From Amphiura filiformis (lineage: Eukaryota > Echinodermata > Ophiuroidea > Amphilepidida > Amphiuridae), in assembly GCF_039555335.1 (NCBI RefSeq), contig NC_092637.1, positions 40,946,526-41,010,525 on the forward strand: DNA of 64,000 nucleotides. The letters run 5' to 3'. The notes under the pieces are model-generated. The model made no database searches. It saw only the letters and a list, made by a program, of their open reading frames with translations, and was not told the DNA's origin. Shown here in pieces: positions 6,788 through 63,112 of the stretch. The position numbers and the translations under genes are program-made. Positions within the stretch are counted from its first letter, which is position 1; every line of letters starts with the position of its first letter.

Positions 6788-6869
6788 TGGCAGCGGTGGG
6801 ATTCGAACCCACGCCATCGAAATGACTGGTGCCTTAAACCAGCGCCTTAGACCGCTCGGCCACGCTACC
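6788..6869 (-). tRNA. tRNA-Leu(AAG)
   Basis: The sequence is identical over its 82 bases to the copy at 6464-6545: AAG anticodon, intact A and B boxes, long variable arm. A five-T stop lies immediately downstream on the minus strand (6778-6782). The flanks differ from those of the other copies, so only the gene bodies are conserved. Confidence 0.95.
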
Positions 6870-16675: not shown

Positions 16676-16714
16676 GATCAAGGCATATCTGGGTAATAAC
16701 GGCATGAAGCTACA

Positions 16715-28504: not shown

Positions 28505-28949
28505 TGTAGTGTCTTGCATCCTCTTGCTGAAACTTGTCCGCTGTCCGATATAATAGCAGGAATACGTGCAGAGAGAGCATGATAAAAATGCATGTTGGCA
28601 GCAATTATTTATGGTCATACATGTTGTTGTGATCAGTGATCACGGTAGATTGCCGAATAGAAGCAAGTATTAACCGTCTTAAAGGCAAAAAAAAAAAGCA
28701 GTGTCGCAATTTACTGACGGAATGAATACAAAAGTTTGGTCGCTACTCGCGCTCGGCGAATCGCATGTAGCATTTCAGACATGGGCGGTTTATAGTAAAC
28801 CATTATTCGTCTCTTTGTCGAATTCATAACGAATGTATAATGACGTGTTTATCTTCTGTACGTCAAAGGATCCTGCAACAGCAACAGCAACAAAATGAAA
28901 AAAAAAGATATAATCTAGAATGAGGTTGATACATAACAATGATGTTATC

Positions 28950-29303: not shown

Positions 29304-29500
29304 CCTCGGTGTAAAGTACACATCATAAGGGTTGTAGGTGACAGCTGTCTCTCTTCCATAACGCAAAGGAGCACGGGGATCTATTTGCGGCACACGTCGA
29401 TTCAAGACGCAACAGCACCCGATAACGATAGTGATAAACAGAATAAATATTAACACACCGCCCCCTACTGATATGCCAACGATAGCTTCGACTGATAATC
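29304..29500 (-). CDS. Receptor exon 22: transmembrane helix and cytoplasmic tail
   Basis: Starts in phase 1 after TTTCTTTTCAG and encodes LSVEAIVGISVGGGVLIFIL, then FITIVIGCCCVLNRRVPQ and TAVTYNPYDVYFTPR. About 27 hydrophobic residues with a GxxxG pattern are followed by three cysteines (possible palmitoylation) and a basic stop-transfer NRR, so type I topology is expected. A strong donor (AGG|GTAAGA) sits at 29298-29303. If it is not used, the frame runs on about 42 codons to a stop near 29178. Confidence 0.85.
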
Positions 29501-32500
29501 CTGAAAAGAAATGAAAAGTTTTATTAAAACTGAGAGGTCTGGAGTTCAAGTCCCCGCACAGTCAGGTTTTTTACACTGATATGTCTGCCTATGCATGTCA
29601 TTTTTCCATTTGTAAATTCATGACTTGTTTGATTGTCAGTGGCGGCGCCAAAAATATTTTTTTCGGAGGGGTGGCATTGAGGGGGCAAAGTGAATTTCAG
29701 TGGGGGGGTGCAAAATCAACCAATTTTGGTTTTTACTGGGGGGCAACAGGGGAGTGACGAGAGTTCTGACGGGGGGCACTGTTGATTGTGCTAACTAGTG
29801 TGCGTAATTCTTCTTTCCCCTGTATATTGATATATTAAGAATAACGATTAAGCATCATTGATTTGATCTCGTGCGCTAGTTTTTAATGTTTGAATGTTTT
29901 TATGTTCCAGTGTATGATGCGTAAGCCTCTCCCCTTGTTTGTATTCTTAAGTATCAATACTCTGTATTCTATTGCATTGGTTCCTGGTCATGGTTGTAAT
30001 GATTAAATCATGGCTAATACTTCCGCTAGCGTGTTTTGTCGTTCGTAGCGATTTTCAATTATCTGACATAGCATTCAGATTAGGTTCTCAACAGCTGTGA
30101 TTATCCGCTCAATTGACAGTCGTCTTAGGGCATTTAAATGAAGGCACTTAATTTAATGCCCACGTGACCACATGGGCGCAGACATTACATCGTCTAGACA
30201 GGATGTCTGGAAAAGTGACCTTTGGCACAGCAGGGGCCTTCCTGTGTATTTCAATTGGAAACGCGGGATGCATGTCCAAATTTTCTAGCAAATTTGTCAT
30301 TTTTTGGCAACTTTGTAGTATTATTGTAAGAGTTTCCGTCGATAACTTTTTTCCGTCGACCAAAACTTTTAGTTCTTGAGCACATATATACTGACCACTT
30401 GGTGATCTTGGTATGGCGGCGCCCATGGGTCACGTGGGCATTAAGTTTAGTGCCTTTTATTTAATATCCTATGGTAACTGATTGATACATATCAATATTT
30501 TCTTCCGTTGCGGTAAATTGTAGTTGCCGAGGAATATTAGTCACTGCGTCTGACACAAGTGTGGATTCGACAAGTAATTGTCTTTTGGTTCCTCTGCCAA
30601 ACGTGGCACGTTTTCCACGTGTTTTGCTTGTTTTTTTTTTTATGTAAGTCGATTACTGCCCACCCCAAGTACTTACCACTGGTTCGTCTACCACTATCAT
30701 CATCGAGGATTACAACGGTAGCTTCATCTGGATTGGCCACCCTCCCATCAGTCACACTCACGATCCTTACATAGAATTCCTCATTATTCTCACTCAACTC
30801 ATCATCAAGGATAGTCACGATAAATGTCGCTTGTGCCTCAGAGGCTTCAAATTCCACTATATGGTTGGATATAGGGGTATAGTCCTGGGTTGCAAGAGCG
30901 TCTCCTTTAAAGGGTATGGTTTCGACTCCTAGGTGGACAAAGACATAACTGATTTAAATTACGTTTTAATTTCACTGGTCGTGTCCAGAGGGGCGGAAAG
31001 TTTGACGTGTTGTATAATAAAGGCGTCGTCATCCCAAGCGCCACATCATTGGAGTGTATACCGGAAGTGCTGACTAGCAAAGTCTTTCATAACTTAAGTT
31101 TAAATTAATATCGTATTAATATTGTTAAACCGGGTTCTTAAATACCGTAAAACCTCGTCTGCAACCACATAGAGTGCTTCTGATGAATGCTAAATTAATC
31201 CCGGTGCCATTATGGAGTTTGAGCAAATAAATGACAGATCCAAGCATATACGAACAAGTATTATTGTAAGACCAATCTTTTGTATTGGCATATTTACGCT
31301 AGTTTCGTATGAACTTAGCTTTCATCAAAAACACTATGTTTGTAGACGAGGTTTTACGTTATACGTTTATATTAGACCCAGGTCAATGACGAAAAATCGT
31401 GTCCACTTCATCATTTCAATTGCCCGGTTCAATTGACACTCCCTCTTTTGCGGTACGCCAACTCGAATTTCTTTAGGGGACGAGACTCCAAGTATGTCCA
31501 AACGGGTTTGAATCCCTAAATTACACCTTAAAGTTCAACATCCATATGGACACGACCAGTCATAGTTCTGTCCTGCTTAGATCTGCTATGGCCATCCTTC
31601 CATTGTGTTGATCTCTCATAATATTGCAATTTGATTTCGTAATGGACTGAAATGACCAGAGAGGTTACACGTACAACATCTTAACCCCAAAAATGTAATA
31701 TGAAAGTCATTGTAATCAAACTACTGTTCTCCTAATTTAATGCAAACAGATTGAGTACACATACGTGCTTCAGCTGCCTCGATAATGCTGCCTTCTCGTT
31801 CAATAGTGATGGTCACAGATTGACCAGGTTCTGGTACTTCATACCGGCTACTTCCAAAGCGATATCCACCTGAAATTTAATCAGTACATATTGCATTGAG
31901 TTATCAAAACACTACTGATCTGCTTACATTTAGAACTGGGTAGTGAACCATTGTAATGATCCGGCCTTTGGTGGGGACAGCTGACGGTCATTTTTACTGT
32001 GAGCCATAAATGCGAAATAACTCGCAGTCAGTTTCCCAAAGAGCAGGGTGATAACCACAGACTTCCCAATCCATCGACGATGCTGATGGATATTTACAAC
32101 CTTAGTACAGACATGATGTGCCGCATTGTAACACCCATGGAGAAAATCACCTGAATCTGATATCCATATATAACAGTGCCCAACTTACACACGACATTAT
32201 CTTGGGAAAATGTGTTATACATAAAAACATCTCAAAAAAAGTAACTAACCCCCCTTAGATAATGACCATTATTCAAATTGTGATTGTATTACAAATCTGT
32301 AAAATGCGTTGGAAGCAGAATTTACTTCTCCGCATTTTGACACCTCATTTGTTGCAATTGACTAAATATTGACGTCACAGCGTACATTTAAATCAATGTA
32401 ACCCAAGATTTGAAAGTAAATTGTATTGATTTTGTACAATGGAAGGAAATCTGAGTAATGATATCTAAGTGTTTTTGTATTGTTTGCAAGTGCAACTTTC

Positions 32501-35500: not shown

Positions 35501-38500
35501 CAGGACCCTCCCCGTACCATGACAGACAATTTCCCCCACCCCATTAGAGACATGTAGTCCATTGAAATTGTAAAAACCAAGGGGATTAGGGGGTTGAGCC
35601 CCCAAATGAGTTGGTTAGCAAACTCAATTCCTCAAAAGAAGATTTCAAGTTCCCCTAAAACCAACCCCTCCCAACAGAGAACACCCCTACCCCCAAGTGT
35701 CTAATTGAAAATTTGAACTGGTAAACACAGATTGTCACTTTAATATTAACACAAAGGTGCATATTATGGGCCGACTCCACCCTGACATTGTTTTAGTCGG
35801 GGTGCTATAACATTTGAAGTGTTTGTGCTATACTAAAAGATAAGGTTTCAATATAAAGCTCTTACTAATAAGCTTTAAGTGGCTATATAATTTACCTATG
35901 TAGGTATAGTAATTTTAAAACAATTCAACATTTTTGCAAAAAATTCTGCGCAAATGTCCGGGCTCCAGCCAAAAGACCAAAAAGTCACACAACGCATGGC
36001 CACATACACAAGCATGCACATCTAGGTTCCAAAGATGTAAATATAATTAACTTCACTCAAAATATCCAAGTAACCTAAATTAGTTCATTCGGTATAATTT
36101 ATTGTTGAAGTATTATTTCCATCTAGAAACACTGCAATGTTAATATTAAAACACATTTTTTAAAAGATGTAATTAATTTCACCCGAGAATCATCATTTCC
36201 TCCTTTCATGGCTCTTGTAGGGTCAGCTTATGTTGTACTGACTAGTGTCAAAATAGCTAAGCAACCTGAATTAGAAGTATTATTTCAATCCAGAAACACT
36301 GTAATTTTAAGCTATTTTAGATATTAAAACACATTGATAGTAAATGTTTCTTGTAAAATAAACTTGACTTTGATTTGAATTATGATATTTGAATATTATT
36401 ATTTATTATTATTATTTGAATGCAATCCACTAATCCATTCTGGTTTAAGCCATTTTGAATGTTATTATACCAATAGACCTAATTACTTCTGACTTTAAAG
36501 TGCTATTAAACTAGAAACACTAATCAACAAACTTGTTAAAACTAGTTGAGGTTTGCTGTTGAACATTTTGAAATAGATCCAATCTTCATTCATGAAAGCT
36601 TTATAATATTTTTGACAAACTCCGGACGATCCTGTATAAATAAGAATTGGATATTTTGAAATTTTCTATGATTTTTGACGCGGTGTTTTTATAACCAAAA
36701 AACCAAAACACAACGATTTTATTTTACAACTGTGAGGGGCTATGCCTGTTTGTTATAACCAAGATACAAGGTAACACCAGCATGGCTGTCCAGCAGAGAA
36801 CAGCAGGCATTTGAAACATCACTTTTTGACCTAAAAATTAGGAAAAATAGAAAAATAACGTTCTTTCTATTAAAAACTAGAAACACTGCAAATCCCTTTT
36901 TTCATGAAATATGACAAGTAATGTGTTAGCTATATACTGACAAAAAATGGATGTGAAAATACTAACTTCTACATGTTAGCAGTGCCATATGTCTTTGTTC
37001 TTGATTTTAAGAGTGTGTTTCAGAGGCGTTAAATTCACGAAAATCAAAGGTTTTGTAAAAAATAATCTAGAAACACTTAGAATTTTTAATGCCCACCATT
37101 GATGTTGGTATACCTAAAGGTAGTCAGGGACTTCATATGAAACAAATTTGCCTACCCCCTTCTTCCGAAATATTTTCAAATCGTATGGTGGTTAACTATA
37201 TTTACACTTAAGATATGACCTTGTGATTCAAAAGTTGTAAAAAATTATAAGTTTCTTTTTGAGCTCAGTTTATTACTAATATGTATATTCACCGTCATTG
37301 TCATGTATTATCACCCGAATTTCCCCAGTTCCAACTTGAATGTCACCACTCGTTATCCTGACAATAAGATCTTCGTCCTTTTCAATCAAATTATCATCCA
37401 CAATGTCGATGTCAACATATGACGTCACCTGTCCCTCCCTAAACATCACGATACGATCAGTAAACTTAGTGTAATCCCGAATGGCTTTTGCTTCTCCGTC
37501 TAGTGTGGATACACCTGGAACATGAATAAAGCAGTTGAAGCAATAATATGTGATTTGCATAAATAATAGATTCGTATTTAAATGTTAGTTTTCACTGATC
37601 ACATTGTCCCTTTTTAATTTCGAGCCAAACAAATAAGGTAATCGTAATATCGGGAAATAAGACGTAAGACGAATAGCGAAATGCACACAGTATGCGTCAC
37701 TGATTCAATGATACACATGAGCTCACATACACGAAACGTGCTAACCATCACTCGATCAGTGAACTCGGAATAAAACAGGAGATCTCCGGTTGGAATATAA
37801 AAACCTAAATTTTAATGTAATTCAGGGACTTTAGGCTTAGCCTTTCACGTGGTAGACACTATTGGGCATTGAAATAATGCAAAAAGTAGAAATTCGAGAA
37901 AAATTGAGGTCGTCGCTGTGGAGCAAATCACATAATGGCTTTAATAAAGCTGCTCAATGCGCGCTCCAAACGTTATCTATCACTGTCAGACCTGTAGCCA
38001 TGATTTGTGTGGGGTGGGGTGGATAGGGTTGCAGAACGTACACAATGAATGCAAAAAACACTTAAATGCATCGAAACTTTAGCTGTGGACTATACCCCCT
38101 GGAGTTTGTTGATCCTATTTTGAAAATGTTCCCTTAAAAGTGACCCTGTGTGAAACTTCACGATAGAGTAGACATTTTGGTGGATATCGTGTGCATGACC
38201 AGGTCAAACCCAGCACTTCACATGCAACTACAAACCGCGGCTACGGGCCTGGTCCATGATGAAAAATACACAATGCATACACGCTAATCAGAGAGGATGA
38301 TTTAAGCACTTCCCAACAAGTCTTGCGGTTAGCACAGCTGTGTGAGTGAACATGGCACCACTGCCCGCCCACTGCTTACACACGTGCATGGTTAAATTTG
38401 AATTTGGACAGATATATTTACAATAAAAACACCTTCAAAAGTTGGTCGATTTCACATTTTATGTTATCTACAGAAGGTGTGAATTATCCTTCATGCATAC

Positions 38501-53500: not shown

Positions 53501-56500
53501 ATATGTCGATCGAACTATATACTTGTATTATCGCGAGAGTAATTCTAATGAATTCTGTAGCCCTGGTTAACATACTGTATCATAGGCTTAGGAACCGGGG
53601 GACTTGCGGGGGCTCAGCCCCCTCAATAATTTTGGTCTGTGGGCTTAGACCCCTCACAATAATTTATTTCAGATGAAGTAAAAAAATATCATCAACAGAT
53701 ACCGGGAATAATGGGTGTTTTTGACTTTTTGCACAATATTTCCTGACACCGAGGGACCCTCCTCGGGCAGCCCCTAGGATGGGTCCTAACTTTTTTATTT
53801 GGTCAACCCCCCATGTTATATATCTTCCTAAGCCAATGTGAATGACGTGAGCAGTCGACGATAAAAAAATCAATGACACTTATTATAGAGTAGCGAGTTA
53901 TTTGCAGTGAAATGTATGTAATAGTTACCATAATCCTATCAAAATAATACAGAGTAGGATTGAGCAACGCACATGACACCTCCGACCAAACCCCCCTCGG
54001 AATGTTAGGGTTCACTTCAAAATGATATTTTTATGTTTGCTACTCTTTTGGTATGGAATACTTTGAACAGCAAAGCTCTGATTGTCGCTTAAATGTTAAC
54101 TGATTAACTCCATAATTAGTTCATTTCAATTCATTTCATTATGCTTTATTTCATTTCATGTTATATCATTTCAATTCATTTCATTTCATTTCATTTCATT
54201 TCATTTCATTTCATTTCATTTCATTTCATTTCATTTCATTTCATTTCATTTCATTTCATTTCGCCTTGATTCGCCCTTTCCCGTTTCGTTATTTGCATTA
54301 CACGGGTAATAAAGTTAGCGAAAGCGTAAGTTATAAGTTTTCGTATTATTATGTACCACGAACTTACTAGTTTGTGAGATTCTATCTAAGTATCCAGTCC
54401 TTTTTACACATATAGTAATACTGACTTTGTCCTCCTCAACAGAGTACGTTTTATCATTGGGCAGATAGTGAATAGCTGAAAACAAAGAAGTCAAAAATCA
54501 AATAAAAATATCGTTAAGTTGGTAAAAGTGTATCTTTTTTTTTTTTATTTCACGGGATGTTTTTGCTTTCATTGCACACGCACTATCGTCCTTTTTGAAA
54601 TTATTTTTAAACATTTGAAAGAAAGTGTATGGCTTTAGGTTGTTGTACAAAATGGAGCAATAGGAATTCAACGAATGGGAAGACATAAAAGAGAGTGTTT
54701 TCAGCCCCTTTATGATTAAAATAAAATGCAAGAATAACACACGGATCCTCGTCGTGAATTTAGTATTATAAACCGTCCTTTTGTTCAATAATTACTACAG
54801 AGAGAAACCTCTTGAAATTGTCAATTACCCATTTGAAACATGTTCTCTATAGATGAGTTGACTTCTGACGTCAATGCCTGGCAGTATGCGCGCGCATCAT
54901 ATTTTGTTCAGGGCTCGCGTTTTTAAAACTCCCGCCACATCACAATAAGGCTATTGAACAGTGTAGTGGTTGCATGGGGTTTATTCAAGCATATCGATAT
55001 ACCAGTCCCTTGCCTTTGTTGATAAACATTGAGGTCACCTTATCTATATAATTCGTGTGTGGCAGTTGACGGGTGTGACGCTTATATCACCGGTTTAATA
55101 GCCACACATATTTCACATATCGTTAAGGCAAATTGCAGCCACGTTTCTCATGTTTTCCTATATGTGACCAGCTTCAACAAGTCGCCAAGCAGGTATTTGA
55201 CCTTGGGATTGAGTGGACTTTCAAATCATTGAAAGTGCTTATTAAAATTTTCGATAGGTTTAGGTGTAACTTTTGAATACGGGTTTATTACATTCAAAGG
55301 GTCCCCATTGCCAACATAATAGGCCTATATTAAGACAAATGAGGCATCAAGATTTGCAAAATAAAACGTTGTTTCCTTTTGCTATTTCAGTTTTAAATTG
55401 TGCTGCATAGGTTATTATCTCATAATAAAGTGGGGGGATTACTTTTTGGTAGATGTTTATTATAATTATACAAAAATAGCAACGATTATTAAATCTTACG
55501 ATCAGTATCCGTTATAATAACCCTTGTTTCAGCGTTCACTCCTGGCTCTGCACCTACAATGGAACTCAAACAGATTGCATAATACTCCACTGGTTCATCT
55601 ATACCATCATCTGCCACACTGAAATCGATCTGGACGTCACTATCTCCCGGTCTTAACTTGATATCATTTAGAGGTGCTGTCGTCACAGATATATCGGCTG
55701 GTGAACCTGCCGTACTGACCATAGTAGTGCATGCTGTTCCATGGTTAAAATCTACTCATATATTTAAAAGAAAAGTGTAAGGGAGCTTTAAGAGTGAGGT
55801 CGTTGAAAGTGGAAAAATGTAAGAAAGCAGACGAAACAGCAAACTGGAAATGTTTTAAAAATGGTTTTAAACATTTTAATAACATCACATTATAAAAATA
55901 TGTGAATGGTTAGTTTGAAAGGATATTACATGCACCTATAAAACGTTTTTATTGCTAACATTATTGATGAGATTCATCAGGATCGTTCAAAGTCAAATTA
56001 AATAAATGAGTTCTGGTACAGATCCAATAAAAATGAAAGTACTCACTAGATATATTTCCACTTCCTATCAGGAACCTTGTTCACTCTGTAATGACTCTAG
56101 TGTTTCTAGATGTCGGCAGTCCTTGGTGGCTGTCCTTGGTTTCTCGACAGCCGTGAAGCCCCACAGCACCCTTCGCAATATGCTCGTGCACCCCAAAGAC
56201 AAACGGGACCCCCTCCAAACAGCTGAATCAATTTATGAAATACCATGCAAGAGCTGTCCTAAGACCTACATTGGAGAGACAGGCCGTCTATTCAAAACTA
56301 GACTATTTGAACACAAAACTGAAGCCGAAAAAATAAGTTCCAAAAATTTTACCAGATCACAAAGAAAGTCATCCACATTCCAAATTCATAAATCGGCAAT
56401 AACTGAGCACGTCGCAGGCAGCAACAATGTTATCAACTGGGACGAGGCAGTAATCATAGATCAAGAGGCAGACAAAACTACGCGTTGGTTAAAAGAAGCC

Positions 56501-59500
56501 ATCTGGATCAGGAGTAGGGGCAAAAACACTATGAACAAGGACGAGGGGGCATACAAATTGGACAGAATCTATGACCAGATCATCTCAAAACGGCAACCTA
56601 CAAATGTGGCAACACCATCACAGCCACCAAGGACTGCCGACATCTAGAAACACCACAGTCATTGCAGAGTGAACAAGGTTCCTGATAGGAACTGAAATCT
56701 AGTGAGTACTTTCATTTTTATTGGATCTGTACCAGAACTCATTTATTTAGTTTTTATTGCTATATTGTAAAATAGTTTTTGCAAATCGGTAAAATCTGTT
56801 ATTAAACGTTTTTATACCCTTAATCTGACAAAATGTTTCTGTTAACTATTTCTAACATTTTGTACGAATTAATTTACGATATACTTAGTAAACATCACAG
56901 CAAAAGGAAATTATTTTTGTTTTGGATTTATTTTGATTTTAAATCTCGGACTACTCATTCAATAAAGAAATGAAATTTGGTCGTACATACCGGGTAAATA
57001 TTAAGTCTTAGGATTTTGCCATCTCTATCTGGGCCTTTTATGACCATATTAAATCTAAAACTGAAATAATTTACATGCAAATGGTAAATACTTCGATTTA
57101 TTTCTAAATAACTCACTAAAATATGTACAGGTTTGTTGACTCCCACCATTTGTTCTCACGACATCAACTGCTAGAACGCCATCCGATTCTAAAACGACTG
57201 GAGAGGTGGGTACGATGTTTAGCTCTGCAGGGTCAGGTGCTTTGGGTAATAATTAAAATAGTGATAATAATAAGAAAAGATGTTATTGACTTGTTAGAAA
57301 GAAAATTTCTCTCAACAAAATATTGACGTACTTTAATATTTCATCACCACATCCGTGGCATTTCATCAGAATTGTGACAGGAGCGGTAAAGCTAATCACG
57401 TGACTCAAGGAGTCACGTGACTTGATGACCGGTTTGTAGACAGGGACAGGTATTGACTTCTAATAACTATTCGAATTAGTTTCTATTTTGAACAGGTGGA
57501 TGGTCGTATGCACCAAGGTGTTAGAAACCACAACCTCTCAATTGACTCTTTCCCCCTTAATTCATCATGGATCGTCATCGCGATTATTTTGCCCTGATAT
57601 GGGTATTCTGATTCCACACCACTCCACGCCATACATAAATTCTCCCAGTCACATTTCCCCAATATGAAATTTAAAAAAAGTAAAATAAAATTTGGCGGAG
57701 GCGGGGTTCGAACTCACGGCGCACCGCTTCGGACACACTATGAACCCAGCGCCTTAGACCACTCGGCCACTTGTCTTGATGATATTCATTCGCAACTTCA
57801 ACATAGGCCTACCACGTGACAAGCAAAGGCAGAAAACGTACCATATTTTGGAATTTTATTTGCCTAAAAACATTAATGTGTATTATAATAGCGCTCAATT
57901 GTTGTGAACTGCGTGTTCTATATACACAAAAAAATTCCAACAATAAACATGATAAATGGGCATCTATATGGACAATACATTATATCGATTTTGACACGTG
58001 CTCGTGTCTCAGTACATTTCCATGGTCAGTAAAATACTATAGAGGAACCTACCATTTTTCTTGTATACACGTTCGATGTTTTGATCAAGTATGTAAATAA
58101 TCGACATTAGACCCAAATGTTTTTTCAGGAAATAAAAGATTAGAATACCATAAAAACGAAACAGTAATCTTTGGTGGGGTCTAATGTAATATTCACATAG
58201 AATTTTCAACGTTTTTTCTATCTTTATTCTTGCTCAATTAAAAAAATATTTTAGCGTATATAAAATTGAAATAAAATTATCTGCCTCTTAAACGACATCA
58301 AATGTGCCACAATTGGGTACACGAATCGTTATGATGTGCAGTTAATATTCATATTTTCTTTTATACAGAGGATGCTTCAGTTTTGACAGGAAAATATGTT
58401 CTTGAAAACCCTCTCACTCGGTTATTTTAAAAAGGTAACCACACTTCCCTAGATTGTGAAGTAAATTAGCGTTAAAATTTGTCTTATTCTAACAGCAAGC
58501 GTTTCTAAAATGCAGTATGGCGAAATGTGGTGTATTCTGATTCCATCGATTTTACAAATAAGTAATTAGTAAATACACGAGTGATGCAGCTTCAGTTCTA
58601 TAAAACGTATTAAAAGCTGCTAGATTTAAGTATATCGACGACCTCATGGTCAATTATAGGTCCACTTGCAAAGTTATTAGATGGGGGTTTGATGTGATAC
58701 AAATTATAATTATCTAGTCGATGAGTCTCATGTCATGATGTGAGGGCGATAGCTCGAGCCTGGTACAGACTCCAAGAATAGATAAATCCGTATCGTACCC
58801 TAAACTTGATTTTATCATGGTCATACCCATGAGGTACAAAATAAACCCCGATAGGCCTAAGACTTTATGGTAACGATTAACCCTAACCCAACTAGGACTC
58901 ACTAAACATGACGCAATCAGACCAAGTCATATATACCCAGGGAATCGTTGGCCGGGCCAACGTCACCTGTGTAGCTACATGCTGGGGATCTTCTGCGTGG
59001 CATGCGAGGGGTCCGAGGTTCGAATCCCGTGGGTGCCATTTGTTTTTTTTTGTTATGTCGACTACTGAGATCTACATTCTTTCCCTTCCGATAGCACAAA
59101 AACCACGGGTAGCGTTAGGGTTAATAAACTTTAAAACTATGAATTCACAAAATGAAAAAATCTTCCTGCTGGTATGGCTGGTAGTTGTCGAATAGAAACT
59201 CGCTGTGTAAAATGACTACAAGGGTAACGAATTTACGAGAGCAAATTTTGCGACGCCCAATTGGAGCTTAAAGTCATCTTTACCGAATCACAAATTCAAA
59301 TTTTGATAGACTCTAAGGACCTTCGATGCATTCAAGTTTTTAGTGGAATTTGTCAGAACTTGATTGAATATTGTTGATAAAACTGTGCAAATTTGCACTG
59401 TGATTACGCGATTCTGGGTTTGTTGCTGTGTAACTTTTTAGCGCATGCGTAGTTCCTCACTGACCTGATACGAGAATTGAAACAAGATCAACTGACATAA

Positions 59501-62500
59501 TATGCGAAATATCCGCGGGAAATATCATGTCAATAAATTGGGGCGCTTATCCAATGAAAACACGGGGAAATACTTGAAAGTATAATAAACGGATAACATC
59601 CATTCTTTTCGCCAGCTTTCTTGGAACAAACAGATAAACATGGATAAGATCAGAGCTCGCCATGTGTGATAAAATAAATTTGAAAAATAATTATAATTTT
59701 TTTGTTAACATAATTTCTAGATTTCTTAAATAAAGAAACAAATACAAAAGTGGCCCATGGGGTAGAAGATAGGTGAGGGGTGCGTGAATGTTAATGTCCT
59801 ATATATTTTGTGTACTACAGCAAAATCAATAATAGTATCACCTTCACCAACAAATGCCGACATTATTAAAAAACTTCAAATATAGCACAATCAATATCAC
59901 TTGAATAAAAATGCCTTCCAAACCAAAGTAATTACGAGGCCTCTTCTACATTTCTCTATCCATAGGCCAGCATGCTTATATAGTGCCTGGCATTCCCTTT
60001 TATAGGGAATTTTCTTATTACGGTGTCTATTACAATACTTTTAATACTGATTTTGATATTGCCTTACCTAATACACCGTACACTTTCACTTCACACAACA
60101 GCAGGGAATCGGGGTCCGTAATGTATACATATCGACCGTAGGTAGAAATAGGACAATCTCGGTAGATGGACTCCATCGCAGCCTCGGCAGTTGTAGCCGC
60201 TTCAGCAGCGGTGACAGGGATTCCACATTCTATGTTACTAGTGATGTCAACATCTGCGCCCGATGTTTCTCTGCAACTGCCTACAAGAATGGTATGGCCT
60301 TGTAAGGCACTGTTAGCAGATGCTTTTGAGAAAGAAAACCGATAATTAATATCATCATCATCATCACCCTCCTTCGGCTGTGGTGCAGGCAAACACAACA
60401 TTTCTCCATGCAAAGTGTAGCCTGAAGCATGCCTTCGTCACACTATAGTACACGCAAGCCTTGGGTGTTGCTTAAATAGGAGGAACGTGGATGTCCACGT
60501 CTCATTTTGCCGTGAGTGCAATTATATAGATGGCTCTTCTCATGGCAGACGAAGGACGTGCCCACGAATCTCAGCTGTAGATTTCTTATACACGGGATTA
60601 AAGGCTCGGTGTTGGTCATTACATAATGTTGTACATTTACTTGGTTACTGTGTTTCAGACTAAATTAGTATTTCGACCAAATTCCTCTTGTTTCTAGCAC
60701 GAACACCTAAACCTCGACCCAAACCCAACAGTTGCGAGCGAGAAATACACGGAGTAACTAAAATGCTTGCGCACTGAAGACCATTATAATGCAACTTACG
60801 ATCATCTGTTCTCTTGATTATTTCCACAGCAAACACATGATACTCTGCTCCTAAGTCTACTCGCCACCAGGGATCAGCACCACCTTTGAAAAGTTACAAC
60901 AGACCAGAACATTTTACTTGTAATGTATTTTCCTCTTAAGCTGAATTTAAGGTTGATCGCCTTTGTCATGTGTGCAGGTAGGCGGCTTGCGCGCATTCAC
61001 GATGTGCAAAAAGACAAGACGTCGTCGTTAATGTACTCAGAACATGCTTTGTATTATCAAGACGCAGAACTCTGTTCTTACCTTCTTTACCACAATTTTG
61101 TATAATACGCCGGTGCTTCGAGTCCGCCTGGGGATAGACTTCTCCGTAGTCCAGTTGCCAATTGTGCATACTCTGGCTATTACATTTAAGCTTAAAACTC
61201 TGATTTAATTAATGTGTGCACAATTGATAGATTTTCACAACTGATCTTTTCAGTCACCGTACGCCCTCTGTTTGTTAGCTTCCCAAGTGGACTACTGACT
61301 TTGGATTGCGGTTAACATTTTTAACACGGGACTCTATGGAGAGTTAGGCCAATTTCTGGCCTGACTAAAATTGGTCATGATGTAATGTATCTTAAAATGA
61401 ATCTGGCTTGTGATTGGTCGCCCAGATCTCGTTATTGTTTAAATCCTCCCGACACGTACTGGTCCCATTAACTATACATGGTACACAACTATCTAGGGAA
61501 TGCGGCGCTTTTGTGCTGGCGCGAAAGTTGGTGGATGAATGTACGCATCTAGCGCGCGTTGTACCACCATGCTTAGTCTTGTGGTTAGAGTTGATTGATA
61601 AACAAGTATGATTGACAGTGTGTTTTAGAGAACGAAGTCCCGGGGTAAAGTTCTGCTTAAAAGTGAAAGTCCATAGTCGATTTTTAACTCGGATAATAAA
61701 CTGGCAGATTCTAAAATTAGAATTGTTCAGTATTGAAGTGCCATTATAATTATGCCATTATGATATGTTGCATTCAATAATATTAGCCTACGTATACTTT
61801 ACTTTTACTGTCACAAATATAATTATATAAACTTTTTCATAACCATTTTATACTAGTATTTTGATGTAATAAATATCAGTATAATTTCGAGTTCAACTGA
61901 ATGCGTTCATCATGATTAATAACATTTTTATTTATCAAAAATCGACTATGGCATAATCTAGCCTGGGGAAAACACAGGGCAACTTGCCCATTCACATACA
62001 GGGCGGACTTGCCCAAACCGTACTTTTTGTTTACCTCGTGTTATGCTTACTAAACACAAAATGTGGATCCTTTAATTGCATAATGTGTTGGGCAAATCAT
62101 TCACCTTCCGAATGAAAACCTTCTCAGAAATACCTGTTTTGATTCGGAAACGTTTGAAGGGAGAGCGTGGCGCAATGGTTAGGGTACTTGCCTTTAGTGC
62201 ATGAGGTCCCGGGTTCAATTCCCGGCGGTGGCAATTTGCTGAGATATTGACTTGGAAAAAACAGTCTGAAATTAATTGGCAACTTCTGTAGATTAATTTC
62301 AGACTTCCGCTCTCCCCATGGTTCAGTTAGAATTGAGTAAATGAATCATGAAAGTACTCCGTCCTTCGGAGGGGACGTTAAGCCGTCGGTCCCGTGTGCA
62401 GAGAGCCATACCTGTACATGTATTTCGCAGCCAGTTTCGAAAAGAGTAGGGTGTTAAACCCCTGAATGTTCCCAACCCGTCCCAGTGTTCAAATGGACCC

Positions 62501-63112
62501 CAATGGAAATAAGCTTCAATAGAGGCTTTCTTGGGTTATCCAGGGTTGTCAGAACCCGAACAAAACAAAAAAGACAATACGTTCTGTGGCAAGATGTGTC
62601 GGACTGTCTTGTTATTTTTTTTTGTACTTAGCTATGACGTGAGCTAGACAATTACATCATCATCGTACTTTCCCAGCAGTCACGAGATCAAAAACACGTG
62701 GTGGGCGGACTTCCCACGAGGGCGGACACTCCCTGTATCCCCTACCTGAATGAGTGACTCCATTTTGAAATATACACTCCGTGTGTGGGAGATTATGGTC
62801 AGGTAGCTACCTTATGGGGTGACGGGTGTAAGGGTGTCAAATGAATTAAATTGCCCATTGAATAAAACATAATGAAACATATAACATCCCTTTGTTAAAA
62901 TACACGCGTTAATTTTATGTCTGTTTTTCAAATGTATTTCTTTGTTCTCAATATAATACACAATAAACTGTTTTACTTACTACTTTGAAAGCAATAAGGA
63001 CTAGAAGTAAAGTCTGTATTTGGGCTCCCATCTAGCGCGGTATCTCCGCAATGCATTGCATCGACACAACCGCTCTGAGATGCTGTCCCACTTTCAGCGA
63101 TTGATTGCAGCA
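29304..63112 (-). CDS. F-type lectin / nine Calx-beta / transmembrane receptor gene (22 exons seen)
   Basis: Order from the N-terminus: an F-type lectin domain (three exons), nine Calx-beta domains (18 exons), then one transmembrane helix and a short cytoplasmic tail. The seen exons total about 3.76 kb, about 1,250 residues. Every extracellular exon has a length divisible by three, starts after an AG, ends before a GT and is in phase 1, so the exons join without a stop. Calx-beta domains are calcium-binding extracellular or cytosolic modules (Na/Ca exchanger, FRAS/FREM proteins, VLGR1, integrin beta-4). F-type lectins bind fucosylated glycans. The likely role is a surface adhesion or recognition receptor; this is inference. 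The signal-peptide exon probably lies beyond 63112 and possibly outside the window. The C-terminal end is also open. Introns carry many mobile elements. I do not recognise a named orthologue. Confidence 0.85.
30134..30462. mobile_element. TIR element in receptor intron
   Basis: Inverted ends: AAGGCACTTAATTTAATGCC then CACGTGACC on the left, and GGTCACGTGGGCATTAAGTT then TAGTGCCTTTT on the right. The arms are about 40 bases and include a CACGTG core. It lies between Calx-beta 9 and the transmembrane exon. No coding sequence. Confidence 0.75.
30677..30928 (-). CDS. Receptor exon 21: Calx-beta 9, second half
   Basis: A 252-base phase-1 exon encoding FKGDALATQDYTPISNHIVE, then ILDDELSENNEEFYVRIVSV and VVILDDD, followed by a short linker SGRRTS to the donor GTAAGT. 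It is the membrane-proximal Calx-beta domain. Confidence 0.94.
30966..31566. mobile_element. TIR element in receptor intron
   Basis: The ends carry ACTGGTCGTGTCCA and the inverted TGGACACGACCAGT. An inner inverted pair is CCGTAAAACCTCGTCTGCA against TAGACGAGGTTTTACG. It lies between the two exons of Calx-beta 9. No transposase. Confidence 0.7.
31765..31869 (-). CDS. Receptor exon 20: Calx-beta 9, first half
   Basis: A 105-base phase-1 exon (acceptor TAAATTTCAG, donor GTATGT) encoding GYRFGSSRYEVPEPGQSV, then TITIEREGSIIEAAEA. PEPG replaces SEDG but keeps the glutamate. Confidence 0.87.
31999..32090 (+). mobile_element. SINE tail fragment
   Basis: Matches the body of the SINE at 62158-62580: GTGAGCCATA, TCGCAGTCAGTTTC, AGAGCAGGGTG and ACTTCCCAATCC correspond to GAGAGCCATA, TCGCAGCCAGTTTC, AGAGTAGGGTG and TGTTCCCAACCC there. 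The tRNA-like head is absent. Confidence 0.6.
32236..32688. mobile_element. Foldback MITE with AGTAACTAACCCCCCT ends
   Basis: The left end AGTAACTAACCCCCCTTAGA and the right end GAGGGGGGTTAGTTACT are inverted. Arms of about 120 bases include AATGACCATTATTCAAA, GTAAAATGCGTTG and TTTTGACACCTCATTTG with their complements. The enlarged relative at 44320-45797 shares the arms. Confidence 0.82.
32702..33064. mobile_element. TTAA-flanked foldback MITE, copy 2
   Basis: Sister of the element at 7245-7609 with a cleaner terminus, TTAAGGGGGTACTACACCCC, and the inverted GGGGTGTAGTACCCCCTTAA at the right. It lies 14 bases from the previous MITE. Confidence 0.85.
33203..37272. mobile_element. 4.07-kb non-autonomous TIR element
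   Basis: The left terminus AAACTGAGCTCAAAAAGAAA, continuing through AAGGTCATATCTTGAAATC, is matched by the inverted right terminus ATATGACCTTGTG and TTTCTTTTTGAGCTCAGTTT. Inside are a foldback at 33265-33650 with about 130-base arms, and a direct duplication (33670-34220 against 34236-34770, both with GGTCGACGGAAGAAGGGGGT). There are also repeated CTAGAAACACTG motifs. I see no transposase. It fills most of the intron inside Calx-beta domains 8/9. Confidence 0.78.
37293..37514 (-). CDS. Receptor exon 19: Calx-beta 8, second half
   Basis: A 222-base phase-1 exon encoding STLDGEAKAIRDYTKFTDRI, then IDIVDDNLIEKDEDLIVRIT and IRVIIHDND. The donor GTGAAT is weak, and the TIR of a 4-kb element begins about 21 bases beyond the exon. 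Confidence 0.94.
38290..38672. mobile_element. Foldback MITE in receptor intron
   Basis: Ends GAGGATGATTTAAGCACTTCC and the inverted GGCTTCCTTAAATCATCCTC. An inner inverted pair is GGTCGATTTCACATTTTA against the complementary TGAAATCGACC. It lies upstream of exon 19 in the intron of Calx-beta 8. Confidence 0.72.
38856..38963 (-). CDS. Receptor exon 18: Calx-beta 8, first half
   Basis: A 108-base phase-1 exon (acceptor CATTTTCAG, donor GTGAGT) encoding TFSFESDQMDTTESIGTL, then RIPISRSIDSCATATTI. It was too short to stand out as an open frame and was found by the exon pattern. Confidence 0.85.
39250..39435. mobile_element. Short TIR element with G-rich interior
   Basis: The left end GGGCTGTGCAATAATTATGA is matched by an inverted CATAATTATTA near 39430. 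The interior has poly-G runs and repeated TTGGCAGGT motifs. A relative is at 63285-63632. Confidence 0.6.
39736..39966 (-). CDS. Receptor exon 17: Calx-beta 7, second half
   Basis: A 231-base phase-1 exon encoding SDTGATFPQDFSPSDAIVTF, then IVGDSAVEGSETFSLTLSKL and VVTIQDQI. It ends QDQI where every other domain ends in DND, DDD, DTD or NDD, so one calcium ligand is lost. Donor GTAACT. Confidence 0.93.
40022..40380. mobile_element. Foldback MITE with CCGGGGGTACTC ends
   Basis: The left end CCCGGGGGGTACTCAGTACA, then ACGGGGACGTGCCGC, is matched by the inverted GCGGCACGTCCCT and TTGAGTACCCCCGGG. The interior repeats TTGGTATATCAATG-type motifs. It lies in the intron inside Calx-beta 7. Confidence 0.85.
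40592..40699 (-). CDS. Receptor exon 16: Calx-beta 7, first half
   Basis: A 108-base phase-1 exon (acceptor TTAATTCTAG, donor GTAAGT) encoding ETFRFENPEYTVGENCGV, then LRVNIIRSGLAGEGTTL. GENC takes the place of the usual SEDG and keeps the glutamate. An unpaired cysteine is present. Confidence 0.9.
41464..41688 (-). CDS. Receptor exon 15: Calx-beta 6, second half
   Basis: A 225-base phase-1 exon encoding ESATPGSDFQDYSVTVIF, then IKEDAISEPTETFRIVLADA and VTVLIIDND. This is one of the most canonical halves in the gene. Donor GTAAGT. Confidence 0.95.
41689..42353. other. Intron DNA, left part of the intron inside Calx-beta 6
   Basis: No exon or clear repeat was recognised. Short open frames on both strands show no domain. 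Confidence 0.4.
42354..42490. mobile_element. Near-perfect 137-bp palindrome
   Basis: The arms of about 65 bases (CCCTGCTACATTAGTTTTAC through GTTTCGTAAGGGCCGTA) are almost perfectly complementary. They meet at AACTTTGTGCACAAAGTT, with essentially no loop. It lies just downstream of exon 14 on the minus strand and would form a strong cruciform or RNA hairpin in the intron. Confidence 0.92.
42593..42730 (-). CDS. Receptor exon 14: Calx-beta 6, first half
   Basis: A 138-base phase-1 exon (acceptor ATAATTTCAG, donor GTATGG) encoding ISLLVEASERIVLEDKGFI, then TFTVSRRGLLNREGED and SLKRVSTA. It is the longest first half, with an extended hairpin after SRRG. Confidence 0.88.
43185..43510. mobile_element. 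Foldback MITE in receptor intron
   Basis: The left arm TTTGGTCCTATAGAACTATC then GGTGCCCGGTTAGGTACCGAT faces ATCGGTACCTCTTCGGGCACC then GATAGAGCTATAGGACCAAA. The outer pair is GTGTGGTGCCTTAT against a weaker inverted match. The intron separates Calx-beta 5 and 6. Confidence 0.78.
43862..44086 (-). CDS. Receptor exon 13: Calx-beta 5, second half
   Basis: A 225-base phase-1 exon encoding TSAFDANITDFQGLTNKPI, then YLHDDIIPESEERFLVTLS and VWIQDDD. All acidic positions are kept. Donor GTAAGA. Confidence 0.93.
44320..45797. mobile_element. Composite foldback element with a second family inside
   Basis: The arms at about 44320-44560 and 45560-45795 are inverted copies (AATTTCCCCTTTAAATAATG against CATTATTTAAAGGGGGTAATT; GTAACCCAAGATTTGAAAGT against its complement). 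They match the MITE at 32236-32688. Between them lies a block of the CAGCAAACAC family (about 44815-45512) with repeated ACGTTTT and GTCGGGTTATATAAAGGTCA segments. This is one element inserted in another. Confidence 0.75.
45798..46075 (+). mobile_element. Penelope-like element 3' fragment
   Basis: The plus-strand frame encodes FPRRVLEAIQIKKQGSSLNR, then ETGLELDHVWDNLIKL and a stop. This matches the end of the GIY-YIG endonuclease of Penelope-like elements (EAIxIxK, LNRxxG, LxxxWDxLL). The GCTGATGACGAGG and CGAAAGCGCTC that follow look like a 3' UTR. It abuts the composite foldback element exactly. Confidence 0.65.
46156..46278 (-). CDS. Receptor exon 12: Calx-beta 5, first half
   Basis: A 123-base phase-1 exon (acceptor TTTCCCGCAG, donor GTAAGT) encoding LFSLQKIEYTVLESVASF, then HVIVHRGPDGNIPAYLEND. 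An internal TTTTCCCTTCAG inside the exon looks like an acceptor, but using it breaks the frame, so the upstream site was chosen. Confidence 0.85.
46560..47155. mobile_element. TIR element interrupted by a SINE
   Basis: The left end ATTCCATTTAAAATCCACAC then TACCCCTGTGTAAGATTTTG is matched by the inverted CAAAATCTTTCACAGTG and GGATTTTCAATGGAATA at the right. The SINE at about 46780-47092 sits inside. The right end is only about six bases from the donor of exon 11. Confidence 0.7.
46780..47092 (-). mobile_element. tRNA-derived SINE
   Basis: On the minus strand the head reads GTGTGGCCGAGTGGATAAGG, then CGCCCGACTCATAATCC and GCGAGTTCGAGCC, which is tRNA-like with A and B boxes. The body GTGTCCTTGGGCAAGGCACT follows, a sequence type common in marine invertebrate SINEs. 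The tail has AATAAA and a T-rich end near 46785. Confidence 0.8.
47165..47416 (-). CDS. Receptor exon 11: Calx-beta 4, second half
   Basis: A 252-base phase-1 exon encoding VIVSGSATDDLAVATEEIDF, then IVNDKRVEHNEVFYVDYSS and VTVMIRNDD. The usual DDxxxE is altered to NDKRVEHNE, so this calcium site may be weaker. Donor GTACGT; a MITE end lies about six bases beyond it. Confidence 0.93.
47744..49355. mobile_element. Mariner-like non-autonomous element, 1.6 kb
   Basis: The ends CAGGGTGAGTCAAAAAGTGC and the inverted GCACTTTTTTTGACTCCCCTG are flanked by TA on both sides (47742-47743 and 49356-49357), as in Tc1/mariner. The inverted repeats extend far inward (CGTTTTAATTTTATGAGTCA and GATACCCAATTT against 49160-49230). 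The 670-bp TTAA palindrome at 48011-48675 is inserted within it. No transposase was recognised. Confidence 0.78.
48011..48675. mobile_element. 670-bp palindromic TTAA element, nested copy
   Basis: Matches 16007-16675 in opposite orientation: GGGATCTGGAATGAGCGTTT at the left, and AAACGTTCATACCCCATCCC then TTAA at the right. The central palindrome and the GAATTGCATTCTGAATACGA arms are conserved. It lies inside the mariner-like element, so it is the younger of the two. Confidence 0.82.
49740..49844 (-). CDS. Receptor exon 10: Calx-beta 4, first half
   Basis: A 105-base phase-1 exon (acceptor ACCTTACAG, donor GTAAAT) encoding LYSVVDQDVSISESDEFV, then TLTFKRDGFDVERRTF. The intron that follows contains the mariner-like element at 47744-49355. 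Confidence 0.88.
49890..50285. repeat. Palindromic dispersed repeat
   Basis: AGAATAAAGGTATTGTTTTA, then ATTATTTTAAGTAAAACAAC, faces its inverse around TCGGCTTCGCCTCG at about 50139-50278. The left part has a GC-richer segment with CGATATCACGCGGG. It resembles the style of the repeats at 4745 and 11505 (CCAATCGG near a CG-rich patch), but I cannot show common descent. Confidence 0.65.
51003..51110 (-). pseudogene. Hairpin plus tRNA-like A-box fragment
   Basis: CTCGATAGTTAGCA pairs with TGCTTACTATCGAG at 51005-51038. On the minus strand CCATTAGCTCAGTTGGTCAA then GCGCAGGACTTTGGTAC resembles the 5' half of a tRNA (A box TAGCTCAGTTGG). The 3' half is missing, so this is a relic of a SINE head or a tRNA pseudogene. 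Confidence 0.4.
51264..51464 (-). CDS. Receptor exon 9: Calx-beta 3, second half
   Basis: A 201-base phase-1 exon (acceptor CACACCAG, donor GTGGGT) encoding FTLDYGRIDRDIVFPAGES, then IYEDLLVEGAETFELVIT and TVTIQDND. It is the shortest second half, missing the GSA-type loop that precedes the DY strand in other domains. The acceptor has a weak pyrimidine tract, but it is the only nearby AG in phase. Confidence 0.88.
52225..52326 (-). CDS. Receptor exon 8: Calx-beta 3, first half
   Basis: A 102-base phase-1 exon (acceptor TTCTATTCAG, donor GTAAGT) encoding IIAFTNSAYFVSEDGQFL, then TVEIEKTENDRKVTF. It is the shortest first half and has the usual SEDG acidic turn. Confidence 0.88.
52887..53114 (-). 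CDS. Receptor exon 7: Calx-beta 2, second half
   Basis: A 228-base phase-1 exon encoding MPGDYMSLSEIVIFNSGESE, then ITDDKDAEVPDEIFTVTI and VTIVDND. This is a textbook Calx-beta C-terminal half with PGDY, the DD/E/DE cluster and a closing DND. Donor GTAAGT. Confidence 0.95.
53115..54118. other. Intron DNA inside Calx-beta 2
   Basis: Contains an inverted pair (TTAGTTCGATCTTTGGATCG, ATGCTCATTCGATGC near 53320 against AAAGATCGACC, CGATCGAACTATA near 53480-53516) and a GC-rich stretch at 53583-53800 with GGGGGCTCAGCCCCC. Probably two degraded foldback elements. No exon. Confidence 0.45.
54119..54261. repeat. TCATT pentanucleotide microsatellite
   Basis: An imperfect start from 54119, then about 19 perfect TCATT units at about 54168-54261. 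It lies about 100 bases downstream of the donor of exon 6 on the gene's strand. Confidence 0.95.
54368..54475 (-). CDS. Receptor exon 6: Calx-beta 2, first half
   Basis: A 108-base phase-1 exon (acceptor TTTGTTTTCAG, donor GTAAGT) encoding IHYLPNDKTYSVEEDKVS, then ITICVKRTGYLDRISQT. SVEED supplies the first acidic site. A TCATT microsatellite lies about 100 bases into the following intron. Confidence 0.88.
55500..55733 (-). CDS. Receptor exon 5: Calx-beta 1, second half
   Basis: A 234-base phase-1 exon. It encodes SPADISVTTAPLNDIKLRPG, then VADDGIDEPVEYYAICLSSI and VIITDTD. The DDxxxDEPxEYY stretch and the closing DTD are the calcium-site signature of Calx-beta domains. The donor GTAAGA follows immediately. 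Confidence 0.92.
55840..55944. mobile_element. CAGCAAACAC-family sequence hosting the Penelope insertion, left part
   Basis: GGTTTTAAACATTTTAATAA and ATAAAACGTTTTTATTGC resemble the ACGTTTT-rich family at 44815-45512. The matching right part continues at 56763-56870 (AAACGTTTTTATACCC), so the Penelope copy landed inside an older element. Confidence 0.5.
55958..56749 (+). mobile_element. Truncated Penelope-like element with an inverted copy of its 3' end
   Basis: The plus-strand frame carries KPHSTLRNMLVHPKDKRD, then YEIPCKSCPKTYIGETGR and LFKTRLFEHK, then EAIWIRSRG. This is the GIY-YIG endonuclease of Penelope-like retroelements, preceded by the last reverse-transcriptase residues. The 3' end (about 56620-56749) is repeated in inverted form at the left (about 55999-56132), replacing the 5' part. 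Thirteen identical bases, GTTTTTATTGCTA, flank the unit (55945-55957 and 56750-56762) as a target duplication. The open frame at 56006-56647 begins and ends in the two arms, so its first 50 codons are an artefact of the inversion. Confidence 0.88.
57117..57239 (-). CDS. Receptor exon 4: Calx-beta 1, first half
   Basis: A 123-base phase-1 exon (acceptor TTACCCAAAG, donor GTGAGT). It encodes PAELNIVPTSPVVLESDG, then VLAVDVVRTNGGSQQTCTYF, which fits the opening Calx-beta strands with the conserved glutamate in LESDG and the RTNGG turn. It joins the exon at 55500-55733 in frame. Confidence 0.78.
57394..57423. promoter_or_regulatory. Perfect palindrome with two CACGTG E-boxes
   Basis: TCACGTGA at 57396-57403 and GTCACGTGAC at 57412-57421 lie in inverted symmetry around CTCAAGGAG. 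GTCACGTGAC is the consensus for MiT/TFE and USF-type bHLH-ZIP factors. The intronic position could be an enhancer, but the pair could also be the core of a small foldback repeat. Confidence 0.35.
57690..57776 (-). pseudogene. tRNA-like pseudogene (Leu/Ser type)
   Basis: The minus strand reads AAGTGGCCGAGTGGTCTAAG, then GCGCTGGGTTCATAG and GTGAGTTCGAACCCCGCC. A and B boxes are present, but the anticodon stem and the acceptor stem do not pair. It is a pseudogene or the head of a SINE. Confidence 0.6.
58960..59052 (+). pseudogene. tRNA-like 3' half with a T-run
   Basis: GGTCCGAGGTTCGAATCCCG, then TGGGTGCCA and a TTTTTTTTT run, looks like a T-arm (B box GGTTCGAATCC), acceptor end and pol III stop. 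The 5' half is not convincing. Probably a retroposed tRNA fragment or a SINE head. Confidence 0.4.
60068..60322 (-). CDS. Receptor exon 3: F-type lectin, C-terminal part
   Basis: A 255-base phase-1 exon (acceptor TTTCTCAAAAG, donor GTAAGG). It encodes SALQGHTILVGSC, then SNIECGIPVTAAEAA, then CPISTYGRYVYITD and LLLCEVKVYGVL. The GRYVYI and LCEVxVYG strands close the F-type lectin beta-barrel. The join to the next exon puts the first Calx-beta domain directly after VYGVL, with almost no linker. Confidence 0.9.
60800..60883 (-). CDS. Receptor exon 2: F-type lectin core
   Basis: An 84-base phase-1 exon (acceptor CTTTTCAAAG, donor GTAAGT) encoding GADPWWRVDLGAEY, then HVFAVEIIKRTDD. PWWRVDLG is the hallmark strand of F-type lectins, and RTD occupies the RXD sugar-binding motif. 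The histidine normally 27 residues before this arginine is a phenylalanine in the spliced product. Confidence 0.88.
60884..62980. other. Intron between the first two lectin exons
   Basis: Holds a SINE at 62158-62580. In the remaining 1.7 kb no exon or repeat was recognised. Confidence 0.5.
62158..62580 (+). mobile_element. tRNA-derived SINE, near full length
   Basis: The head GGGAGAGCGTGGCGCAATGG, then GGTCCCGGGTTCAATTCCC and GGCGGTGGCA, is tRNA-like. The body contains CCTTCGGAGGGGACGTTAAG, then CCGTCGGTCCCGTGTGCA, a segment widespread in marine invertebrate SINEs. It then continues TCGCAGCCAGTTTCGAAAAG and ends near AACAAAACAAAAAAG. The fragment at 31999-32090 is a second, headless copy. 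Confidence 0.8.
62981..63112 (-). CDS. Receptor exon 1 seen: F-type lectin, N-terminal part
   Basis: A 132-base phase-1 exon (acceptor ATTACCTAG, donor GTAAGT). It encodes LQSIAESGTASQSGCVDA and DTALDGSPNTDF, then SSPYCFQS, matching the GxAxQS and A.DG..NTD motifs that open F5/8-like F-type lectins. Reading upstream to a methionine at about 63158 gives a hydrophobic stretch that could pass for a signal peptide. That stretch is also a good pyrimidine tract before the acceptor, so I prefer an internal exon. Confidence 0.78.

What the first reader, a model, noticed from the sequence alone, without database searches (positions are those of the whole stretch)
29304..63112. Predicted lectin receptor joining an F-type lectin to nine Calx-beta domains and a transmembrane helix
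Twenty-two exons on the minus strand splice in frame into F-type lectin, nine Calx-beta domains, one transmembrane helix and a tail. F-type lectins are usually secreted or combined with other lectin, sushi or pentraxin modules. I do not know of a described protein with this architecture. It would be a glycan-recognising head on a long calcium-stiffened stalk, fit for cell recognition, adhesion or immunity.
Basis: partly seen in the sequence, partly recalled or inferred. Interest (0 to 1): 0.78.

Follow-up and report, generated by a model that had tools for sequence, protein, structure and literature searches.

The report
Lectin-fold receptor on Calx-beta stalk
The sequence holds most of a real animal gene for a cell-surface protein that appears to put a lectin-like head on a stalk of nine calcium-binding domains anchored in the membrane, but the head has lost most of the residues that lectins of its family use to hold fucose.

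Summary
On the minus strand, 22 exons join in frame without a stop into an F-type lectin domain, nine Calx-beta domains, one membrane helix and a short tail. The head's best solved relatives are bass FBP32 (E 3e-18) and eel lectin 1k12. All nine Calx-beta domains pass the Pfam cut-off, one only after a splice site was re-chosen. All 21 modelled introns are phase 1; picks blind to phase gave phase 1 at 17 of 18 acceptors and 17 of 18 donors of the Calx-beta exons. Five acidic positions are kept in 9 of 9 domains at 16-36% pairwise identity. Two corrections: the head keeps the calcium motif but one of three fucose-binding basic residues, so 'glycan-recognising' is unproven; and both gene ends are unsettled (29304 is a donor, not an end; 63112 may be an acceptor). 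That lectin and stalk share one transcript is likely, not shown. No paper in the held library contains both 'F-type lectin' and 'Calx-beta'. Best reading: a type I adhesion or recognition receptor, a new combination of known parts.

The parts
62981..63112 (-). [quoted passage not shown] alternatively the exon starts at ATG 63158)
63113..63158 (-). possible signal peptide in an open extension of FL1, beginning at an in-frame ATG (10-residue hydropathy up to 2.86); alternative to an upstream exon beyond the window
   Evidence: no separate signal-peptide-like exon found in 63113-64000
60800..60883 (-). FL2: lectin exon with PWWRVDL and the retained RxD
60068..60322 (-). FL3: lectin exon, ends at the domain border (LCEVKVYGVL) with a strong phase-1 donor (9.8); its acceptor was chosen to complete the domain (score 6.5; 60280 scores 7.9 and 60377 scores 7.3)
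57117..57224 (-). C1a: first half of Calx-beta 1 (borders uncertain)
   Evidence: weak alone
55500..55733 (-). C1b: second half of Calx-beta 1 (start revised from 55706)
54368..54475 (-). C2a: first half of Calx-beta 2
52887..53114 (-). C2b: second half of Calx-beta 2
52225..52326 (-). C3a: first half of Calx-beta 3
51264..51464 (-). C3b: second half of Calx-beta 3 (acceptor uncertain)
   Evidence: phase-blind acceptor pick differed
49740..49844 (-). C4a: first half of Calx-beta 4
   Evidence: weak alone
47165..47416 (-). C4b: second half of Calx-beta 4
46156..46278 (-). C5a: first half of Calx-beta 5
   Evidence: weak alone
43862..44086 (-). C5b: second half of Calx-beta 5
42593..42730 (-). 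C6a: first half of Calx-beta 6
41464..41688 (-). C6b: second half of Calx-beta 6
40592..40699 (-). C7a: first half of Calx-beta 7
39736..39966 (-). C7b: second half of Calx-beta 7
38856..38963 (-). C8a: first half of Calx-beta 8
   Evidence: weak alone
37293..37514 (-). C8b: second half of Calx-beta 8
31765..31869 (-). C9a: first half of Calx-beta 9
   Evidence: phase-blind donor pick differed
30677..30928 (-). C9b: second half of Calx-beta 9 and short juxtamembrane linker
29304..29500 (-). TM exon: single membrane helix, Cys-Cys-Cys and basic residues after it, start of cytoplasmic tail; may end at 29304 (donor, phase 0), at 29182 (donor, phase 2), or be terminal with a stop just after 29181

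Best explanation
An intact animal gene for a type I membrane protein: a single F-type-lectin-fold head at or near the N-terminus, a rod of nine Calx-beta domains, one membrane helix and a cytoplasmic tail. Each Calx-beta domain is encoded by two exons, and all 21 modelled introns are phase 1, so modules can be added or lost without breaking the frame. Proposed mechanism: calcium bound at the conserved acidic sites near the domain ends stiffens the rod and holds the head away from the membrane, where it contacts a ligand on another cell, a microbe or the matrix. The head is unlikely to use the canonical fucose site, because two of its three basic residues are gone. It binds either another glycan, through the kept fold, calcium motif and RxD, or a protein. 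Shown here: the exon series, domain identities, the conserved acidic positions and one hydrophobic helix. Inferred: a single transcript, secretion and orientation, calcium stiffening (by analogy with exchanger Calx-beta domains), ligand binding and an adhesion or recognition role.
For: 22 AG/GT exons join in frame with 0 stops in 1,238 codons. For the 18 Calx-beta exons, phase-blind picks give phase 1 at 17 of 18 acceptors and 17 of 18 donors, P about 1e-7 each if the three phases were equally likely. Exon GC is 0.439 and intron GC 0.357. Lectin: E 3.2e-18 to 3cqo and 5.5e-10 to 1k12, 46 of 135 aligned residues identical to 1k12. Calx-beta: E 1.3e-90 for the model, and 9 of 9 domains over the cut-off, C1 with its revised border. 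Acidic columns: five kept in 9 of 9 and two in 8 of 9 domains, against 16-36% pairwise identity; matching positions of the Na/Ca exchanger are seen. One helix by hydropathy. Lectin-stalk linkage: same strand, a phase-1 donor at the end of the lectin domain, a phase-1 acceptor at the start of the first Calx-beta domain, a 2,843-base intron within the range of the others (477-5,423), and no signal-peptide-like start exon in that intron.
Against: No transcript, protein or orthologue was available. All module borders being phase 1 also means that any two such modules would join in frame, so phase alone does not prove one gene. If the FL3 donor is not used the frame stops 12 codons further on, so a small soluble lectin could be made from the same exons; four AATAAA/ATTAAA motifs lie in the lectin-stalk intron, a number I take to be no more than chance but did not test. 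The first Calx-beta domain, next to the lectin, scores low (30.8 bits with the revised border, 20.9 without), and its first exon is not significant alone. The FL3 acceptor used is only the third best in its frame. The fucose site is eroded, which weakens a lectin role. Both ends of the gene are unsettled, so further domains may exist; the introns and the flanks were not scanned with Pfam (one search was not accepted).
Confidence: 0.7

Rival explanations
1. Two genes: a small separate F-type lectin gene, followed on the same strand by a Calx-beta membrane protein whose own start exon was missed.
For: Phase 1 is the common phase of extracellular modules (recalled), so lectin and stalk would be joinable by chance. 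F-type domains occur in relatively short secreted lectins (PMC8878817, passage). Reading through the FL3 donor reaches a stop after 12 codons.
Against: The lectin ends at its domain border in a strong donor (score 9.8). No signal-peptide-like exon lies in the 2,843 bases between them; the same scan found 1 candidate in the other six regions scanned. The scan is crude, covered 6 of 21 introns and the upstream flank, and would miss unusual signal peptides.
Confidence: 0.13
2. The architecture shown is a fragment of a larger known type of protein, such as an ADGRV1-like or FRAS/FREM-like protein, with further domains outside the modelled exons.
For: Both ends are unsettled. Those families carry Calx-beta arrays (PMC10323441, PMC10095167; passages).
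Against: In the model the Calx-beta array is followed at once by a single helix, and no CSPG, GAIN or 7TM family matches at E up to 1. ADGRV1 has a GAIN domain and seven helices, and Fras1 has CSPG repeats before its Calx-beta domains. Upstream domains cannot be excluded.
Confidence: 0.12
3. The head is a working fucose-binding lectin of the canonical kind.
For: Similarity to FBP32 and eel lectin over the whole domain, kept cation motif ALDGS, kept RxD, and cysteines in ExC, DCP and LCEV matched by 1k12.
Against: His52 and Arg86 counterparts and the Cys82-Cys83 pair are not kept in either alignment. PMC5712786 (passages) says such changes may mean other specificity or loss of sugar binding.
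Confidence: 0.15
4. The locus is a decaying pseudogene.
For: Some splice borders (C1b, C3b) are weak and the fucose site is eroded.
Against: There are 0 stops in 1,238 codons, and five acidic sites are kept in 9 of 9 domains.
Confidence: 0.04

Closest known systems
F-type lectins: MsaFBP32 (3cqo) and eel agglutinin (1k12)
   Same: Same domain by sequence (E 3.2e-18 and 5.5e-10); PWWRVDL core and cation motif; cysteines in ExC, DCP and LCEV
   Different: Those carry the intact His-Arg-Arg fucose site in one or two F-type domains; here two of three are lost, the paired Cys82-Cys83 is absent, cysteines 15, 21 and 88 of the model are extra, and the domain heads a membrane protein
Mosaic membrane F-type lectins of Drosophila (furrowed, CG9095)
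   Same: F-type domain in a large protein with a predicted membrane domain; [quoted passage not shown]
   Different: Partners are complement-control modules and a C-type lectin domain, not Calx-beta
FRAS1/FREM2, and CBCP (which I recall to be FREM1)
   Same: Extracellular Calx-beta domains; Fras1 and Frem2 made as transmembrane proteins (PMC10095167); CBCP joins a lectin-type domain to a Calx-beta domain (PMC514892)
   Different: CSPG repeats dominate; five Calx-beta in Fras1; the CBCP lectin domain is C-type
ADGRV1
   Same: Long calcium-binding Calx-beta ectodomain with another domain of a LamG/pentraxin kind (PMC10323441)
   Different: 35 Calx-beta domains, EPTP repeats, GAIN and seven helices; no F-type lectin named
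Na/Ca exchanger calcium-binding domains (NCX1, fly Na/Ca exchange protein)
   Same: Best solved relatives of the Calx-beta domains by sequence, matching acidic positions
   Different: Two regulatory domains in a transporter (cytoplasmic side recalled), not an extracellular stalk

Membership tests
F-type lectin family | Sequence similarity over the whole domain | tested here: met
   3cqo residues 154-289 match query 4-154, 1k12 residues 10-150 match 3-152
F-type lectin family | Fucose motif HX24RXDX4(R/K) | tested here: not met
   RxD kept; His position is Phe or Gln, last basic position is Ala or Asn (motif from PMC5712786)
F-type lectin family | Cation motif h2DGx | tested here: met
   ALDGS aligned with AIDGN
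F-type lectin family | Binds fucose | not testable with these tools
   needs protein
Calx-beta domain proteins | PF03160 match over the gathering score, each domain | tested here: met
   9 of 9, C1 only with a revised splice site
Calx-beta domain proteins | Acidic calcium-ligand positions | tested here: met
   five columns 9 of 9, two columns 8 of 9, on an alignment made with the first C1 model; that these are the ligands is recalled from exchanger work
FRAS/FREM family | CSPG repeats before the Calx-beta domains | tested here: inconclusive
   no CSPG match in the model, but introns were not scanned with Pfam (not accepted) and sequence upstream of the window is not available
ADGRV1 | GAIN domain before seven membrane helices | tested here: not met
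   one helix directly after Calx-beta 9, no GAIN or 7TM match in the model; the stretch below 29304 was not scanned with Pfam as a whole

The most novel reading that the evidence does not exclude
A class of cell-surface recognition receptor not described in the held papers, in which an F-type lectin fold with a rebuilt binding site is carried on a calcium-controlled rod of nine Calx-beta domains, used for cell-cell, gamete or microbe recognition in an invertebrate.
Probability: 0.45. Interest if true: 0.6.

Novelty: new variant of a known kind. Interest (0 to 1): 0.45.

Why it matters
If one transcript is confirmed, it adds a new partner for the F-type lectin fold and a calcium-tunable stalk to the list of lectin-type membrane receptors. 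It also gives a clear test of whether a degenerate F-type domain binds a different ligand. It remains a recombination of known modules, so it is of interest mainly to people working on lectins, innate recognition and domain shuffling.

Tried and rejected
Homology: the lectin domain was searched in viral contigs and in bacterial and archaeal genome contigs; 10 and 69 stretches matched a pattern, none was confirmed as a relative. These collections are not of animal genomes, so this says nothing about animals. The window's own genome is not held. NCBIfam gave nothing for the lectin-to-Calx-beta-4 part, and for Calx-beta 9 plus membrane exon only a partial exchanger match far below its cut-off; Calx-beta 5-8 were not sent there.

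Extra exons: no further Calx-beta or lectin ORF stands out in the window. A start exon between lectin and stalk, or upstream of the lectin within the window, was looked for with a crude scan and not found. I did not try to choose among candidate tail exons below 29304.

Splice alternatives: 12 variants of Calx-beta 1 were scored against a profile of the other eight domains; the best uses 57224, 57117 and 55733 (32.0 bits against 25.3 with 55706). This is a chosen best of twelve. For Calx-beta 3 I found no better canonical acceptor than 51464 among the AG sites listed.

Papers: seven full-text searches ran; the longer result lists were shown to 20 entries only. 'F-type lectin' with 'Calx-beta' gave 0 papers. 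At least two of 'Calx-beta', 'fucolectin', 'F5 8 type C', 'discoidin domain' gave 5 papers, of which only PMC514892 holds Calx-beta. Bishnoi et al. 2015, cited in PMC5712786 for F-type lectin architectures, is not held, so an earlier mention there cannot be excluded. Of the papers I looked into I saw passages (PMC5712786, PMC514892, PMC5460417, PMC10323441, PMC10095167, PMC11788884, PMC12716839, PMC8878817) and one whole section (section 13 of PMC5712786); none was read whole.

Full report
What was checked. The window looks like animal DNA (introns, interspersed repeats; inference), and no genome is held for it. I collected stop-to-stop frames on both strands (2,178 of 20 residues or more; minus-strand frames listed), scored splice sites for 22 candidate exons, and joined them. 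The result is 1,238 codons without a stop: lectin exons FL1-FL3, nine pairs of Calx-beta exons, and one exon with a membrane helix. All 21 introns between them are phase 1. Replacing 55706 by 55733 as the start of C1b adds nine codons and raises Calx-beta 1 from 20.9 bits to 30.8 bits, over the 27-bit Pfam cut-off.

Is it more than chance? Pfam scores the nine domains at 28.6 to 70.1 bits (C2-C8, C9 and the revised C1). A leave-one-out profile finds 9 of 9 second-half exons at E 3.5e-5 or better; among the short first-half exons 5 of 9 are below 0.05 and 4 are not significant alone. Picking the best splice site without regard to phase, 17 of 18 acceptors and 17 of 18 donors fall at phase 1; the two exceptions are the C3b acceptor and the C9a donor. 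The C1a acceptor and donor picked that way lie at other positions than in my model, though also at phase 1. Under equal phases the chance is about 1e-7 for each set. The lectin and membrane exons were not part of this test; for FL3 I chose the acceptor that completes the domain (60322, score 6.5) over 60280 (7.9) and 60377 (7.3). Exons have GC 0.439 and introns 0.357.

The stalk. The nine domains share only 16-36% identity, yet five acidic columns are kept in 9 of 9 and two more in 8 of 9. They match the Glu of ENCG, the Asp of SDY, an Asp and Glu of the IIDDD...E loop, and the terminal acidic cluster of the Na/Ca exchanger domains shown. That these bind calcium in the exchanger is recalled knowledge. 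The pattern argues for selection on calcium binding in the array. No further Calx-beta ORF stands out in the window.

The head. Its best solved relatives are F-type lectins: FBP32 E 3.2e-18, eel lectin E 5.5e-10, then a platelet-aggregation factor and fucolectin-related proteins. Identity to 1k12 is 46 of 135 aligned residues. The cation motif and the PWWRVDL core are kept. The published fucose motif HX24RXDX4(R/K) (PMC5712786, passages seen) is not met. In 1k12 numbering, Arg79 and its Asp are kept, but the His52 place holds Phe in the MAFFT alignment (Gln if the cysteines are matched), the Arg86 place holds Ala (Asn if ungapped), and the Cys82-Cys83 pair is absent. The same review says that Drosophila CG9095 and five oyster isoforms have lost members of the triad. 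So the head belongs to the F-type family by sequence, but its canonical sugar site is probably not used.

One gene or two? Lectin and stalk lie on one strand. The lectin ends at its domain border in a phase-1 donor of score 9.8, and the first Calx-beta exon starts with a phase-1 acceptor. The 2,843-base intron between them is within the range of the others (477-5,423). A crude scan for a start exon with a signal-peptide-like segment and phase-1 donor found none there, none upstream of FL1 in the window, and one in the other five introns scanned. Against this: all modules share one phase, so any would join; reading through the FL3 donor meets a stop after 12 codons, so a short soluble lectin could be made; and four polyadenylation-like motifs lie in that intron, which I did not test against chance. 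One gene is favoured, not proven.

Ends. The membrane exon has a phase-0 donor at 29304 (score 9.0) and a phase-2 donor at 29182 (score 10.0), and if neither is used the frame stops just after 29181. I could not identify a further tail exon. Some 800 bases further on begins a block of six 1.79-kb tandem repeats. At the other end, FL1 is open upstream to an ATG at 63158 with a hydrophobic stretch that could be a signal peptide, but the sequence before 63112 also looks like an acceptor (score 5.5). More N-terminal domains beyond the window are possible.

What it resembles. F-type domains in membrane proteins exist (Drosophila furrowed and CG9095; section read). A lectin-type domain joined to Calx-beta exists (CBCP, with a C-type domain; passages of PMC514892). 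Long or multiple Calx-beta ectodomains exist (ADGRV1, FRAS1; passages of PMC10323441 and PMC10095167; sea star FRAS homologue with five Calx-beta, passages of PMC5460417). The combination here was not found in the held papers, with the caveat that a key survey of F-type lectin architectures is not held.

Verdict. A real gene with the claimed architecture, likely a type I adhesion or recognition receptor with a calcium-binding rod.

Noticed in passing
16712-28507: Block of tandem repeats of about 1,788 bases, six copies about 99% alike, in pairs separated by about 270 bases; two open frames from it have no Pfam match. It lies near the 3' side of the receptor gene.
   Followed up: partly
56006-56644 (+): 213-residue open frame inside the C1a-C1b intron with a weak GIY-YIG match (18.0 bits, cut-off 22.6), perhaps a piece of a Penelope-like retroelement (recalled).
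   Followed up: partly
6084-6869 (-): Three tRNA-Leu(AAG) genes in a row.
   Followed up: no
62161-62233 (+): tRNA-like match of Rfam (38.3 bits) inside the FL1-FL2 intron, not reported by ARAGORN; perhaps a tRNA-derived short interspersed element.
   Followed up: no
1-3186: Satellite with 146- and 292-base periods.
   Followed up: no
16007-16674 and 48013-48676: Copies of a roughly 650-base element matching in both orientations (90% and 83%), so each is itself an inverted repeat; similar at 32702-33064 and 7245-7605. Likely foldback mobile elements.
   Followed up: no
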